Shown here piece after piece: positions 38,515 through 53,408 of a DNA stretch of 64,000 bases. The stretch lies in assembly GCF_034259325.1 (NCBI RefSeq), contig NZ_JAXIVS010000021.1, forward strand, positions 62,001 to 126,000, written 5' to 3'. The DNA is from Hyalangium ruber (GTDB taxonomy: Bacteria; Myxococcota; Myxococcia; Myxococcales; Myxococcaceae). The stretch's first letter is position 1. Each line of letters starts with the position of its first letter. Below the pieces are notes generated by a model. It searched no databases. It was not told the origin of the DNA and worked only from the letters and a program-made list of their open reading frames with translations. The translations under genes were made by a program, and so were the position numbers.

Positions 38515-41500
38515 TCAGCGCTTGCGACGACGGCGCAGCACCGTGAGCAGCCCGGTCAGCCCCAGCGCCGCCGCTCCCGAGCCACCGCCCGAGCAACCAC
38601 ACCCGGACAGAGGCGCCTCCGGCGCCCGCGAGATGGGCACGGTCCGCAGGGAGGCCTGGCCCTCGAAGCGCTGCGACCCGAGCAGCTTCGGACGCACCAC
38701 GTAGCTGAGCTGCCCGGTGGCACCGCCCTCCAGCACCAGCCCGCTCACCTTCAGCCGGGTGCCGTCGAACGTGGCCTCCACCGGGGCGCCGTTGAAGCGC
38801 GCGCTGCCGGAGACGTAGTCCGCGCCCTCCAGGAGCTCCTCGTGTACCACCTCGCGCACGCCGCACGCCGTGGTGTTGCGCAGCTCGACGGACACGCCAA
38901 TGAGGTTCGTCTCGCCACCCGCGGGCCGCTCCGTGCGGCGGCTCAGCGCCACGAAGGGCTCCACGGTGATGGGTACGGTGTGCTCCTGCCGCGACACCAA
39001 CCCGTTGTTCGCCGTGACGCGCAGCACCACGGACTGGCCAATGAGCGCGCCGAAGTCCGTGTCCTGGGTCTCCACGTCAATCCTCGGCCCGGTGAAGACC
39101 CGCTGCGTCAGCGCTGGTCCATCCTCGTCAATCTGCTCCCAGGTGAGCGGCACCGTCGCGCACGGTCCCAGCGGCAACCGCTGCTGGAGCGTGCCCCGGG
39201 CCGCCTCACCACAGACCGCAGTGAGGCGCGGCGCCTCCAGCGGCTCCAGCGGGATCGTGACGGGCGGAACATTCACCGTCAGCTCGGCATCCTCCGCCAG
39301 GGTGCCCGGCATGTCTTCTCCGAGCCCTGCCCCTCCCTGCACGCCCGCGCCTCCCACCAGCTGGCCCACCACGCGGTAGCGCGCCCCCTCGCACCGGTCG
39401 CCCAGGGGGAACGTCCACGGCCCGGGAACGTTGAAGGTCCCCTGCTGGGCCACGCTGCCATCCTCGCGCTCCAGGCGCAGGTTCGCCTTCACCCCTCCGC
39501 GCTCAGAGATGCAGTTGAGCCAGGGTGCCGTCACCGTGCCCGTCACGCCCTGGGACGTGGAGGAGGTCTCCGTCAGCACCGGCTGCCCGGCGGACAGCGG
39601 CACCCAGTTGGGGTTCACCGTCACCTCATAGGCGGAGACGGGCCCCAGGATCCCGGAGCCGTCCTTCGGCACGTGGCGCACCGAGAACGGCAGGACGGCG
39701 CTCGCGCACTCCTCGGTCTGCACCGTGAGCCGCGGCGTCACCGCCCGCGTCGTCGTCACCGGGCTGCCATCTTCCGTGAGCAGCTGGATCTTCGACGGAG
39801 GCAGCGCTCCCGCCGGCAGATCCCACACCGTATCGACCCCCGGGTAGCCCGTGCTGCCCACGCAGGCGTGCTCGGCCTGGGGCTCGATCGTCAGGCTCTG
39901 CCCCGCATTCAGGGCCGCGCCCGCTCCGGCCCCGAAGGGCGCGTACGGCGTGCCCCAGGGGCGCACCTGCACACCGAACTCGGCGGGCGACGAGAGCAGT
40001 CCCTCCTTGTCCTTGGCGTAGACCCGGTAGAAGTAGCTCACCCCGTTCTCGGCGCACAGCGTGGGCGGGCTCGGGAAGGTCGCGCTCATGCTGCCCGGCG
40101 CGATCGCGGGCGCGCTCGGCGTCTGCGCCTCCCAGTAGTAGTCGGTGATCGCGCACCGGGGATTCGTCGGAGGCAACAGCTCGATGACCCCCGCGTCCCC
40201 ACCGGCCTGCACCGTCAGTCGGTTTGTGGTGAGCTCGGGCGTTTCGGGCGGGAGGGTATGGCGCACCCGCAGGTCCACGCCCACCCGTCGCTGATGGCTC
40301 GCCATCCCATCGGCCGTGACGAGCTCGAAATGCACCGCCTGCCCCTCGCAGAGGGGGCCGGCATCGACCGTGAACTCCACGCCGTCCTCCCGCACCGCCG
40401 AGGTGACATGCACCCCGTTCATCCGCATCTCGGGAGGCTCCACCGTCACGCGGACCGGGTCTCCGTCCAGGTCATCCACGCTGACGAAGATCGTTCCCAC
40501 CGAAGACTCGGGCACGGAGGCATCCGTGCCTGCGTCCACCACCGGCGCGTGGACGTTCCGGTAGAAGGCGATGTTCGGCACTCCCGCATCTGGCATCCGG
40601 CCCAGGGTCAGGACACAGAACTCCGCGCCGCGGCATGCCACCTCGCGCGGCGGAGCGGGGAGCGGCGGCTGTCGAGGCGACACCCTCCAGGTGGTCCCGA
40701 ACTCCTCGGGCCGGGTGCCCGGCACGGCGCGCAGCACCACCGAGCCGCCCGGCTGCGGCGCCAGCGCCATGCCGAAGCCTTCGCCGTAGGCAGTGCCCGC
40801 GTCGGTGTTCACATCCACGCTGGCGACGGTGGTCCCCCGGAACTGGGGCGGCACATCGACCTCCGCGAAGGGAAACGCCGAGGTATCGAGCGTCCCACGC
40901 AGGAGGCCGGAGGTCGTCGCCAGCAGCGCCGTCGGGGCAGCGGTCCCCGAGGGGATCAGCTCGATCGCCAGCGGCGAGGCGGGGGTGTAGGGCCCGGGGG
41001 CCACGTACGAAGCTTGGAGCTGATCCCCGCGGTACCAGAGAAAGCCCATCGCGCCCGGCCGGATACCGACGAGCGCGTGCTCGCCGCTGTCCAGCGAGAG
41101 CACCCCGAGGGCATCCGTCGTCAGGCCCGGCTCGTTGTACAGCAGCGCCCAGGGCCCCGGCTGGCGAACGCCTCCATCGCCGTAGGCCAGCAGCGCCGAG
41201 CCCGAGACGGTGTCCACGCCCCACGCGAAGGCATTGCCCGCTCGTGTGTGCTTTACCCGCGTGAGGTTCGGCGCATCGCCCGTGGCGAAAAGGTCCGCCG
41301 AGGGGGCGCAGCCCGTGGGGACGCTCTCCACGCCGTCATCCCTGCGGAACGCGGCGAAGCAGCCCCCATCCGACAGGTGCGTGCCCACCGCCCAGAAGCC
41401 GGGCAGGCTGCGCAGCGTGCCGCCCCCCGGAGCATAGAGGTAGGCACCCTGTGTGGTGGACACGGAGTAGAGGCCGTTGGGCCACACCTCCACGTCATCC

Positions 41501-53000: not shown

Positions 53001-53408
53001 CTGGCGCAGCAGCCGCTCCTTGTCGCGGCGCAGCTGGGTGAACTCCACCGCGTTCTTCACGGTGATGAGGAGGTCGGTCACCTCCCAGGGCTTGGTGATG
53101 TAGCGGTAGACCTGGCCCTGGTTGATGGCGGCGATGATGTCTTCGGGCTCCGTGTAGCCCGTGAGGAGCAGCGCGGTGACGTCGAGGCCCTCCTCGCGCG
53201 CGGCCGTCACCAGCTCGATGCCCGTCATCTCCGGCATGCGCTGGTCGGTGACGAGCACGTCCACCGTGTGGGTGCGCAGGATGGAGAGCGCCTCGGGGCC
53301 GGAGGTCGCGGTGAAGACGTGGTACTGGCGCTGGAACATCCGACTGAGGATGTCCAGCACGTCCGGCTCGTCGTCGACGAGGAGCAGGGTGGGTCGGGGG
53401 TCGGACAA
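50079..53408 (-). CDS. Cluster B: hybrid kinase REC-GAF-PAS-HisKA-HATPase-REC-REC-GGDEF-like
   Basis: 1109-aa cytoplasmic signal integrator with a TTG start. Domains in order: REC1 (1-120, Asp55), GAF (about 160-300), PAS (about 305-420), HisKA with His433 (SHELRTPL), HATPase (about 535-650, GTGLGLAI), REC2 (675-790), REC3 (797-915, Asp847, LGGDDYITKPF), and a GGDEF-like domain (945-1095) whose signature reads AGDDF at 1000-1004. REC2 has Ala724 in place of the phospho-Asp (VAVRLPD) and IES for the acidic pocket, so it is a pseudo-receiver. Probably regulates the cluster B envelope genes, with which it forms one operon. Confidence 0.92.
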   Translation of the reverse strand: MSDPRPTLLLVDDEPDVLDILSRMFQRQYHVFTATSGPEALSILRTHTVDVLVTDQRMPEMTGIELVTAAREEGLDVTALLLTGYTEPEDIIAAINQGQVYRYITKPWEVTDLLITVKNAVEFTQLRRDKERLLRQLNQRVEALFVLYEVSRASASDPPSYEAIIDRVLSAVARVLPYDCGAALIAPDDSRSAILRLRCLGTVGEKALLSVKESMLGAYRRSSGNLLPEDRLTTRVTGNISQDDSAPAVYPSQLTVSLVAGGKPVGMLSLFSEKPQAFSEDDGVLLDTLANQTADAIQSLRSVEEEARRRIERMVESMTDGVLLTDEADAIVVINPAARELLRLGDDTATLTGRMLEERLGFEPSELIRGWEYSGSQVLKEEVELFDRHIQVTVTPVNDARGNVRGVCVVLRDVTEQKMLEDRKDEFVSMVSHELRTPLTSISGALDLVLNFLAGPINEKQQRYLALAKESTEKLNALVDDLLDLAKFAKGRLRMNFELAYLDELVRRAVEKYGPAFQERRVKVSTSLPQYGLRAMSDPNRINQVLNNLLTNAVKFTPEGGEVVLELRATSALPGYVSLSCWNSGEPIAEENLERIFDRFEQARTPANRTVRGTGLGLAICRHIVEAHGGRIWCEPSSQGVRFVTVLPAEPPRELWQEGAEVPSSTPKRPEPRGRVLVIESETELAYLVKGLLMGRGYDVRIASTAEEGISAARRHHPDVILVAVRLPDVEGLRLAEILRHDPDTRRTPLLISSSFDERQRAFRSGADAFLLRPLMADKLVATVDSLVRGRTGQQHGRVLVVDDDSKISGICSEVLTSLGFEVSVAGTLEDARRVLRERRPDAILLDVGLPDGDGFDFIEEIKAERASGHISVIFISARAETASKIRALKLGGDDYITKPFDALELGARVESVLRRKEQELGASPTTQLPGSNSIEREVQRRLMARRPFAFCYLDLDNLKAYNDYYGFAKADGVVRQTADLLREIFAQEGSPGDFLGHVAGDDFVFIINPESVDRICQHAMEAFDRIIPLYYDRQDRERGHIEAEDRFGEKRKVPIMTVSIIAVISDGVSHDHAELARRAADLKKRAKAIQGSVFLRSDRDRESRTVTG

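What the first reader, a model, noticed from the sequence alone, without database searches (positions are those of the whole stretch)
38515..53408. Cluster B: a paralogous version of cluster A with reversed strand and two-component kinases
Left to right, both clusters read MYXO-CTERM protein, barrel protein, Ig/regulatory-fold protein, FecR protein, membrane kinase(s). Cluster A is on the + strand and B on the minus strand, so transcription order is opposite while physical order is the same. B replaces the Ser/Thr kinase with a histidine kinase and a hybrid. Shared domains in three protein pairs argue for common descent and kinase swapping. This is the best candidate for a new system in the window.
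Basis: partly seen in the sequence, partly recalled or inferred. Interest (0 to 1): 0.8.

Follow-up and report, generated by a model that had tools for sequence, protein, structure and literature searches.

The report
Ancient myxobacterial cell-surface signalling gene cluster
Cluster B is an old, uncharacterised set of genes, conserved across myxobacteria, that seems to wire outer-surface proteins to a chain of signalling kinases inside the cell; its neighbour A shares one surface-protein module but has a different kinase and linker, which makes the wiring look modular.

Summary
The genes at 38515-53408 are as described, but B is not a copy of A with a swapped kinase. One homologous pair is secure, and not by position: the Ig half of A's barrel protein and B's Ig protein (hhalign 99.3%, E 2e-20; BLASTP E 1e-13). 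Other pairs share only generic domains.

This Ig module marks a family found in 96 of 119 genomes of the order and 122 of 174 of the phylum. B is probably the old form: hybrid kinase, sensor kinase, FecR, beta-propeller (lost here), Ig, giant barrel, MYXO-CTERM-like protein, in the same order in another class. A, seen in three genera, joins an Ig-barrel gene to a FecR/Ser-Thr-kinase cassette that also occurs alone.

FecR varies with the kinase: inner-membrane anchor in 41 of 45 FecRs of histidine-kinase-type loci, lipoprotein in 17 of 23 with Ser/Thr kinases. All 19 full-length non-orthologous matches of B's sensor kinase lie beside an Ig gene.

Best reading: trans-envelope kinase signalling with exchangeable FecR-kinase cassettes. 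The mechanism is inferred; nine literature searches found no paper on it.

The parts
50079..53408 (-). B6: soluble hybrid kinase, REC-GAF-PAS-HisKA-HATPase-REC-REC-GGDEF-like, 1109 aa; first gene, divergent from lexA
   Evidence: Pfam; no TM window; HisKA histidine and first receiver Asp kept in the 19 of 20 aligned sequences that cover them, GGDEF signature xGDDF in 20 of 20
48235..50082 (-). B5: membrane sensor histidine kinase, two TM, dCache-like periplasmic part, HAMP, HisKA, HATPase, 615 aa; overlaps B6 stop by 4 bases
   Evidence: Pfam, dCache below its cut-off (26.1 v 45 bits); TM windows; full-length relatives lie next to Ig genes
47218..48210 (-). B4: FecR protein, uncleaved N-terminal TM anchor, Pro-rich linker, periplasmic FecR and Glucodextran_B-like Ig domain, 330 aa
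   Evidence: Pfam FecR 31.3 bits and Glucodextran_B 31.3 bits, both over cut-off; TM
47119..47217 (-). Place of a beta-propeller gene with MYXO-CTERM-like tail found in 19 of 20 relatives' loci and absent here
   Evidence: present, e.g. L031 9563-11224; no match anywhere in the own genome
45184..47118 (-). B3: secreted tandem-Ig protein, 644 aa from a probable CTG start; homologous to the Ig half of A2
   Evidence: Invasin_D3 and Big_1; A2/B3 match; CTG in 32 of 33 distinct orthologs
41603..45187 (-). B2: outer-membrane giant beta-barrel protein with N-terminal Ig-like domains, 1194 aa; GTG start overlaps B3 stop
   Evidence: AlphaFold model pLDDT 79.8, pTM 0.74; Foldseek/VIA matches are mostly outer-membrane barrels; 43 strands of 7+ residues after residue 320
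38515..41646 (-). B1: surface protein with a GCGC-helix-Arg tail (MYXO-CTERM-like), 1043 aa (the start may be the ATG at 41628)
   Evidence: TIGR03382 15.6 bits against cut-off 15.85; orthologs L037 and L034 pass a MYXO-CTERM cut-off
53525..53541 (+). LexA-box-like site in the lexA promoter, upstream neighbour of the cluster
   Evidence: sequence and its conservation; the consensus is recalled
53599..54279 (+). lexA, divergent neighbour; found beside cluster B in 11 of 20 fetched loci (some stretches end before it)
9482..11377 (+). A1: cluster A protein with a MYXO-CTERM-like tail
   Evidence: no NCBIfam match
11383..13323 (+). A2: tandem-Ig protein with C-terminal 8-strand OmpA-like barrel; its Ig half is homologous to B3
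13320..14150 (+). A3: secreted protein with CarboxypepD_reg domains
14154..16055 (+). A4: FecR protein, lipoprotein by its lipobox (LWAC)
16052..17788 (+). A5: Ser/Thr kinase, one TM, periplasmic AgmX/PglI (TonB-like) tail
   Evidence: Pfam Pkinase; NF033768 35.5 bits, cut-off 40; TM at 395

Best explanation
Cluster B is an ancient trans-envelope signalling locus of Myxococcota. The giant barrel B2, the Ig protein B3 and surface proteins with MYXO-CTERM-like tails (B1 and, elsewhere, the propeller) form an outer-membrane and cell-surface assembly. Its state is read in the periplasm by the inner-membrane-anchored FecR protein B4, which acts on the neighbouring sensor kinase B5; B5 phosphorylates the N-terminal receiver of the soluble hybrid B6, whose own kinase, two more receivers and unusual GGDEF-like domain set the output. 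FecR and kinase form one exchangeable cassette: where the kinase is a Ser/Thr kinase, as in cluster A, FecR is a lipoprotein and comes from a different FecR lineage. Shown: gene content, conserved order, shared Ig module, co-variation of FecR lineage and anchor with kinase class, near-exclusive neighbourhood of the B5 kinase subfamily. Inferred: locations from sequence signals, physical contacts, direction of signalling, phosphotransfer, and the stimulus (surface contact or envelope state), which is unknown.
For: Order hybrid-HK-FecR-(propeller)-Ig-barrel in 15 of 20 fetched cluster-B loci of the order and complete in 4 of 18 loci fetched after the phylum search (L156, L160, L162, L169), also in a named Myxococcus xanthus record, where the stretch begins inside the hybrid gene (L178). 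B5 as a query in 20 genomes gives 35 full-length matches: 16 orthologs, 13 of them beside an Ig-core gene, and 19 others, all 19 beside one. FecR tree: 26 FecRs of B loci and 29 of other Ig clusters (19 of the 29 with the dCache kinase alongside) group together (SH-aLRT 91); the seven A FecRs with 3 of 11 standalone-module FecRs (94); ten FecRs of D and related kinase-less clusters apart with one other row (88). FecR anchor: HK-type loci 41 TM, 1 lipobox, 3 unclear of 45; Ser/Thr-kinase loci 17 lipobox, 0 TM, 6 unclear of 23. HisKA histidine and first receiver Asp of B6 kept in 19 of 19 sequences that cover them. Overlapping genes B6/B5, B3/B2, B2/B1 fit one transcript.
Against: No experiment, and no interaction prediction between the proteins. 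26 of 85 Ig loci have no kinase of either class within 9 kb at my score limits, some because contigs end. Of 20 cluster-B loci, L040 has no sensor kinase or hybrid alongside, L045, L046 and L050 have neither these nor FecR within about 7 kb, and L047 is cut by its contig end; 3 of 16 B5 orthologs lie about 18 kb or more from the Ig gene. The anchor rule is not strict: one FecR beside the histidine kinase (L123) is a lipoprotein, and several FecRs of the same tree group without an adjacent same-strand kinase (L069, L116, L117, L122, L161) have a lipobox. The contrast was noticed after looking and rests on few independent lineages, so its Fisher p (6e-14) is not a proper probability. The FecR tree has only 149 columns. 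B6 has no DNA-binding output, its second receiver lacks the Asp in the window and its GGDEF is non-canonical, so the end of the pathway is unknown.
Confidence: 0.5

Rival explanations
1. The kinases are not fed by the surface proteins; they are a sensor and phosphorelay that controls production or assembly of the Ig/barrel/MYXO-CTERM-like proteins encoded beside them, and FecR is an accessory of the kinase sensor.
For: FecR goes with the kinase rather than with the Ig protein; B5 has its own periplasmic sensor part; the surface genes stand without adjacent kinases in 4 of the 19 loci that can be judged; FecR-histidine-kinase operons described without an outer-membrane barrel exist (BiofilmReg, PMC5192318, abstract and passages read).
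Against: B6 carries no DNA-binding domain, so a direct transcriptional output is missing; the same kinase subfamily sits beside quite different barrels.
Confidence: 0.25
2. The locus is an export or assembly machine: the giant barrel B2 is a translocon or scaffold for the Ig and MYXO-CTERM-like proteins, and the FecR-kinase part only monitors it.
For: The B2 model is a very large barrel (43 strands of 7+ residues after residue 320); Foldseek rows include the type 9 translocon and pilus ushers besides porins and TonB-dependent receptors; MYXO-CTERM-like tails next to it.
Against: [quoted passage not shown] the top structural row is an S-layer barrel (Z 13.4, rmsd 9.9, 448 aligned) with many barrels tied behind it, so only a common arrangement; no sequence relation to a solved barrel.
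Confidence: 0.15
3. A and B share only generic Ig folds and the resemblance is coincidence.
For: Pairs A1/B1, A3/B3 and A2/B2 are weak or at the level of single shared domains.
Against: A2/B3: hhalign E 1.8e-20 over 304 columns, mutual best non-self matches in the own genome, a common 280-column core found in 122 of 174 phylum genomes, and intermediates that combine an A2-like Ig-barrel with a B-like kinase and FecR (L070-L072).
Confidence: 0.03

Closest known systems
FecA-FecR-FecI cell-surface signalling (TonB-dependent receptor, anti-sigma FecR, ECF sigma; outline recalled, and named in a passage of PMC9239204)
   Same: An outer-membrane barrel protein, a periplasmic FecR domain on a membrane anchor and an intracellular regulator encoded together; works like it in outline.
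   Different: No TonB-dependent receptor or plug family match in B2, no anti-sigma domain in B4 and no sigma-factor gene among the cluster's six genes; kinases take that place.
BiofilmReg operon of Burkholderiales (response regulator - LysM/FecR protein - CHASE2 histidine kinase - DUF4136; PMC5192318)
   Same: FecR-domain protein encoded with two-component genes; a strain with an interrupted response-regulator gene lacks biofilm production (abstract and passages read).
   Different: No LysM, no CHASE2 and no DNA-binding regulator here; Ig, giant barrel and MYXO-CTERM-like proteins are not part of that operon as described in what I read.
Campylobacterota cluster of CHASE2 adenylate cyclase, phosphodiesterase, FecR-domain outer-membrane protein and TPR protein (PMC9239204)
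   Same: FecR protein encoded with a sensor enzyme, another enzyme class around the same FecR theme (passages read).
   Different: Cyclase rather than kinase; no Ig-barrel or giant barrel mentioned in the passages read.
Intimin/invasin family (inverse autotransporters)
   Same: Ig core matches Ig domains of invasin and InvD (E 6e-6 and 8e-5) and, barely, intimin (0.048).
   Different: Ig domains are N-terminal to the barrel, and the barrel has 8 OmpA-like strands in A2 or is a separate giant protein in B; that intimin-type barrels come first is recalled.
MYXO-CTERM / myxosortase surface proteins (PMC11980579)
   Same: Tail of B1, propeller orthologs and A1: Cys motif, helix, Arg-rich end.
   Different: The tag is one of dozens per genome according to the paper's abstract and says nothing about this system as such.

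Membership tests
Two-component histidine kinase / phosphorelay | HisKA and HATPase domains, phospho-acceptor His, receiver Asp | tested here: met
   Pfam over cut-off for B5 and B6; His and first receiver Asp kept in 19 of 19 B6 sequences that cover them; the second receiver's Asp is absent in the window and many others, the third's in L039, L042 and L146
FecA-FecR-FecI cell-surface signalling | FecR domain in the periplasmic part of a one-TM protein | tested here: met
   B4: FecR 31.3 bits, cut-off 24; N-terminal TM; periplasmic side inferred
FecA-FecR-FecI cell-surface signalling | Cytoplasmic anti-sigma domain and partner ECF sigma factor gene | tested here: not met
   About 13 residues before the TM in B4 and no such domain; none of the six genes encodes a sigma factor
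FecA-FecR-FecI cell-surface signalling | TonB-dependent receptor with plug | tested here: not met
   B2: no TonB-dependent receptor or plug family in Pfam or NCBIfam at E 0.05; by fold many barrels incl. TonB-dependent receptors tie
BiofilmReg operon | LysM+FecR protein and CHASE2 histidine kinase | tested here: not met
   B4 has no LysM; B5 has a dCache-like part, not CHASE2
Inverse autotransporter (intimin/invasin) | Barrel before the Ig repeats in one protein | tested here: not met
   A2 barrel is C-terminal with 8 strands; no barrel seen in B3's sequence, which was not modelled
MYXO-CTERM protein | Curated tail model over cut-off | tested here: inconclusive
   B1 15.6 v 15.85 bits; orthologs L037 (20.7 v 20) and L034 (20.6 v 15.85) pass, L033 no match; A1 no match
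Diguanylate cyclase | GG[D/E]EF signature | tested here: not met
   AGDDF, GGDDF, TGDDF or QGDDF in 20 of 20 aligned B6 sequences; activity not tested
AgmX/PglI TonB-like tail (cluster A kinase) | NF033768 over cut-off | tested here: inconclusive
   35.5 bits against 40, full length 1-92 of 92, E 7.8e-9
Type 9 translocon, pilus ushers, S-layer barrel (fold likeness of B2) | Fold similarity well above unrelated barrels | tested here: inconclusive
   Many barrel families tie (VIA Z 13.4 down to 10.9 in the 50 rows shown; Foldseek TM at most 0.32 in the 50 rows shown)

The most novel reading that the evidence does not exclude
Myxococcota carry a family of modular trans-envelope receptors in which one outer-membrane Ig/barrel module can be wired to either a histidine-kinase or a Ser/Thr-kinase pathway by exchanging a FecR-kinase cassette, FecR being the adaptor that switches from an inner-membrane to a lipoprotein anchor according to the kinase. 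Cluster B is the ancestral, most widespread member. This would be FecR signalling without a sigma factor, and across kinase classes.
Probability: 0.35. Interest if true: 0.78.

Novelty: new variant of a known kind. Interest (0 to 1): 0.6.

Why it matters
Myxobacteria have very many kinases whose inputs are mostly unknown (general knowledge). A conserved locus that ties one kinase subfamily to outer-membrane and surface proteins, with FecR varying with the kinase, offers a testable route by which the cell surface could talk to histidine and Ser/Thr kinases. The locus is present in a Myxococcus xanthus record (L178), so it can be tested in a tractable laboratory organism. It also suggests that FecR is a general periplasmic adaptor and not only an anti-sigma partner.

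Tried and rejected
Position-wise pairing of A and B proteins: rejected after BLASTP, phmmer and hhalign all-against-all. Cluster B as a recent copy of A: rejected by distribution. SOS control of cluster B through lexA: one LexA-box-like site was seen by eye, inside the lexA promoter; I made no systematic scan and did not pursue it. Relation of B2 to solved barrels by sequence: none at E 1. Giant barrel as specific to this system: rejected; relatives at 24-37% identity occur in Proteobacteria, Omnitrophota and Nitrospira records without the Ig core (0 of the last 40 of 80 loci); one Nitrospira locus (L241) has FecR and a dCache-like kinase beside the barrel. One origin of the Ser/Thr-kinase clusters: not rejected (AU p 0.336 on Ig cores; p 0.11 on kinase domains), although none of the six D-type kinases is among the listed relatives of A5, while 6 to 16 other kinases of each of the same six genomes are (capped list). 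Literature: searches (open-access PMC only) gave no paper on this locus; MXAN_4438-4449 were searched on the assumption that locus tags run on from lexA (MXAN_4446, passage read).

Selection: the Ig loci in the tree were picked by me from hit lists across genera, not at random; three (L142-L144) were fetched because of kinase hits, and without them the kinase-adjacent count is 56 of 82. Kinases were counted only above 250 bits (dCache profile) or 350 bits (Ser/Thr profile), so weaker ones count as none. Eight rows dropped as too short in the first Ig tree (77 rows) were restored (85 rows). In the FecR tree the label for 'other Ig clusters' also held ten FecRs without the dCache kinase of my list. 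The tail scan is a loose pattern with many evident false matches; I use only the tails read there. The fold search of B2 covers the whole model; single domains were not searched alone.
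Full report
What is there. Cluster B starts beside the divergent lexA: B6 hybrid kinase (50079-53408), B5 sensor kinase (48235-50082), B4 FecR protein (47218-48210), B3 Ig protein (45184-47118), B2 barrel (41603-45187), B1 protein with a MYXO-CTERM-like tail (38515-41646), all minus. B6 and B5, and B3 and B2, overlap by 4 bases. B5 has two membrane helices and B4 one; B6 has none. Pfam gives B6 REC, GAF, PAS, HisKA, HATPase, REC, REC and a GGDEF match; its signature is xGDDF (AGDDF, GGDDF, TGDDF or QGDDF) in 20 of 20 aligned sequences.

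Start of B3. No in-frame ATG, GTG or TTG lies before the signal peptide. A CTG sits at the expected place (47118) and is CTG in 32 of 33 distinct orthologs at 54% identity or more; the exception, L041, has other start codons. Among 29 conserved leucine columns this is the one with most CTG, against 59% CTG overall; another column is CTC in 33 of 33, so an invariant codon alone is not proof. In three of the 33 (L177, L185, L190) a GTG or TTG lies upstream in frame within 40 codons. Initiation at CTG is inferred, not shown.

Test of the paralogy claim. BLASTP between all A and B proteins gave one clear A-B pair, A2/B3, E 1e-13, 29% over 324 columns. Six-frame searches of the own genome with either protein returned the other as best non-self match. 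Profiles of orthologs, all against all: A2/B3 99.3%, E 1.8e-20; B2/B4 94.9% (one Glucodextran_B-like domain); A1/B1 85.8% over 146 columns; A4/B4 85.6% over 150 columns; A5/B4 67.9% over 12 columns; A1/A2 66.7%; A2/B2 52%; B3/B4 34.2%; A3/B3 27.7%; the rest under 5%.

The Ig family. The A2/B3 core (280 columns, e.g. VNVG...PPxxxPQVA...FGPVxADxxG...VPPG) was aligned from 15 loci. It was found in 96 of 119 genomes of the order at E 1e-8 and in 122 of 174 of the phylum at E 1e-10. I fetched neighbourhoods and scanned them with local profiles. Types: B; A (G000 and six genomes of two other genera: A1, Ig-barrel, A3, FecR, Ser/Thr kinase); C (dCache kinase, FecR, Ig-barrel: L070-L072, L081, L100, L130, L131, L133); D (Ser/Thr kinase, Ig, further proteins, FecR: L067, L068, L080, L101, L104; L129 is cut by its contig end); E and I (two kinases with Ig, with or without FecR); G (Ig, A1-like protein, dCache kinase: L082, L083, L142-L144); and loci without a kinase, among them a third copy in the own genome (L084). 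Of 85 loci, 46 have the dCache kinase within 9 kb (43 same strand, 3 opposite), 13 a Ser/Thr kinase, 26 neither; 57 have FecR. C clusters join an A2-like Ig-barrel to a B-like kinase and FecR and so link the two.

B is probably the old form. In 20 cluster-B loci of the order, 15 have hybrid, sensor kinase and FecR beside Ig and barrel; L040 has FecR only; L045, L046 and L050 have none of the three within about 7 kb; L047 is cut by its contig end. lexA is alongside in 11 of the 20; some stretches end before it. In G028 hybrid and sensor kinase stand 1.8 Mb away (L146), in G080 hybrid, kinase and FecR stand about 114 kb away (L147), and in G097 the kinase about 18 kb away by its coordinates. Of 18 loci fetched after the phylum search, four show the complete order hybrid, kinase, FecR, propeller, Ig, barrel: L156 (same class, another family) and L160, L162, L169 (another class). 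Named records with the locus or parts of it include Myxococcus xanthus AM003 (L178), Archangium, Pyxidicoccus, Corallococcus, Citreicoccus and Anaeromyxobacter; lexA lies outside the L178 stretch. The propeller gene is present in 19 of the 20 loci (all but L039), missing from the own genome and from three genomes of another genus, and from six of six Corallococcus loci that span the place (L183, L185, L187, L189, L190, L193).

Kinase specificity. B5 as a query over 20 genomes returned 35 matches over its full length (query start 8 or earlier, end 610 or later). Sixteen are orthologs, of which 13 lie beside an Ig-core gene (11 seen in fetched loci, two by coordinates). The other 19 all lie beside one (one of them, L108, on the opposite strand). 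The further matches listed begin at query residue 122 or later.

FecR goes with the kinase. In a tree of 89 FecR domains (149 columns), 26 FecRs of B loci and 29 of other Ig clusters group (SH-aLRT 91); 19 of the 29 have the dCache kinase alongside, ten do not or could not be judged. The seven A FecRs group with three of 11 FecRs of a standalone A3-FecR-Ser/Thr-kinase module (94), the other eight of that module lie apart; ten FecRs of D and related kinase-less clusters form a group with one other row (88). The standalone module occurs in the own genome at contig C7 and in eight further genomes (11 loci, some cut). A-type kinases group with its kinases (80/90) and D-type kinases form a separate clade (100/100), but A+D as one clade is not rejected (p 0.11). 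Anchors: FecRs of histidine-kinase-type loci (26 B, one of them with its kinases elsewhere, and 19 others) 41 TM, 1 lipobox, 3 unclear of 45; with Ser/Thr kinases (A, D and the standalone module) 17 lipobox, 0 TM, 6 unclear of 23; the rest, without a kinase of my lists, 9 lipobox, 1 TM, 6 unclear of 16. Five of those nine (L069, L116, L117, L122, one of L161) belong to the FecR group of the histidine-kinase clusters, so the anchor has changed within it. These are few independent lineages and a contrast noticed after looking.

Structures. A2 model (pLDDT 85.2): Ig domains, then eight long strands; Foldseek finds invasin, FdeC, InvD and OmpA. B2 model (pLDDT 79.8, pTM 0.74): Ig-like domains, then 43 strands of seven or more residues after residue 320; matches are many kinds of outer-membrane barrel. 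Whether the barrel closes was not checked.

Mechanism and rank. The simplest account is a surface and outer-membrane assembly read by FecR and passed to a kinase chain. The co-variation of FecR with the kinase and the near-exclusive company of the B5 subfamily are the main support. Signal, direction and output are inferred. The rival that the kinases merely control the surface genes remains open.

Known relatives. FecR domains next to sensor enzymes are known: BiofilmReg in Burkholderiales (PMC5192318; abstract and passages) and a cyclase cluster in Campylobacterota (PMC9239204; passages). An M. xanthus FecR lipoprotein, MXAN_2063, is mentioned beside pmxA (PMC8844925; passage). Hence a new variant of a known kind rather than a new category.

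Noticed in passing
window 47116-47118 (minus): Probable conserved CTG initiation codon of B3: CTG in 32 of 33 distinct orthologs; a start call limited to ATG/GTG/TTG cuts off the signal peptide.
   Followed up: partly
G000 contig C7:199144-204613 (L134 8645-14114): Standalone A3-FecR-Ser/Thr-kinase module in the own genome, a relative of the right half of cluster A; 11 such loci seen.
   Followed up: partly
window 9482-17788 and 38515-53408; also G100, G101, G102: The Ig genes of A and B lie 24-30 kb apart on opposite strands also in three genomes of another genus, but far apart in G075 and G076.
   Followed up: partly
L241 (Nitrospira sp. record): A 4506-residue open frame with a B2-like barrel followed by FecR, dCache-like histidine kinase and two receiver genes: a similar association outside Myxococcota.
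   Followed up: no
L180 (record titled Comamonas sp. KCTC 72670): A myxobacterial cluster B (hybrid cut by the stretch) with barrel identity 63% to the window's; the record's organism name is probably wrong.
   Followed up: no
window 25780-27645: Kinase-like protein lacking the HRD and DFG motifs (read by eye), likely a pseudokinase; relatives sit near the D clusters in L067 and L068.
   Followed up: no
G000 contigs C6:518067 and C19:105379 (L153, L151): Two further FecR loci with Ser/Thr kinases within 3 kb; 5 of the 7 FecR loci of the genome are near a kinase.
   Followed up: no
B2 residues 160-228 and B4 residues 236-304 (window about 44.5-44.7 kb and 47.3-47.5 kb): The barrel protein and the FecR protein share a homologous Glucodextran_B-like Ig domain (38% identity, E 6e-6; hhalign 94.9%).
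   Followed up: no
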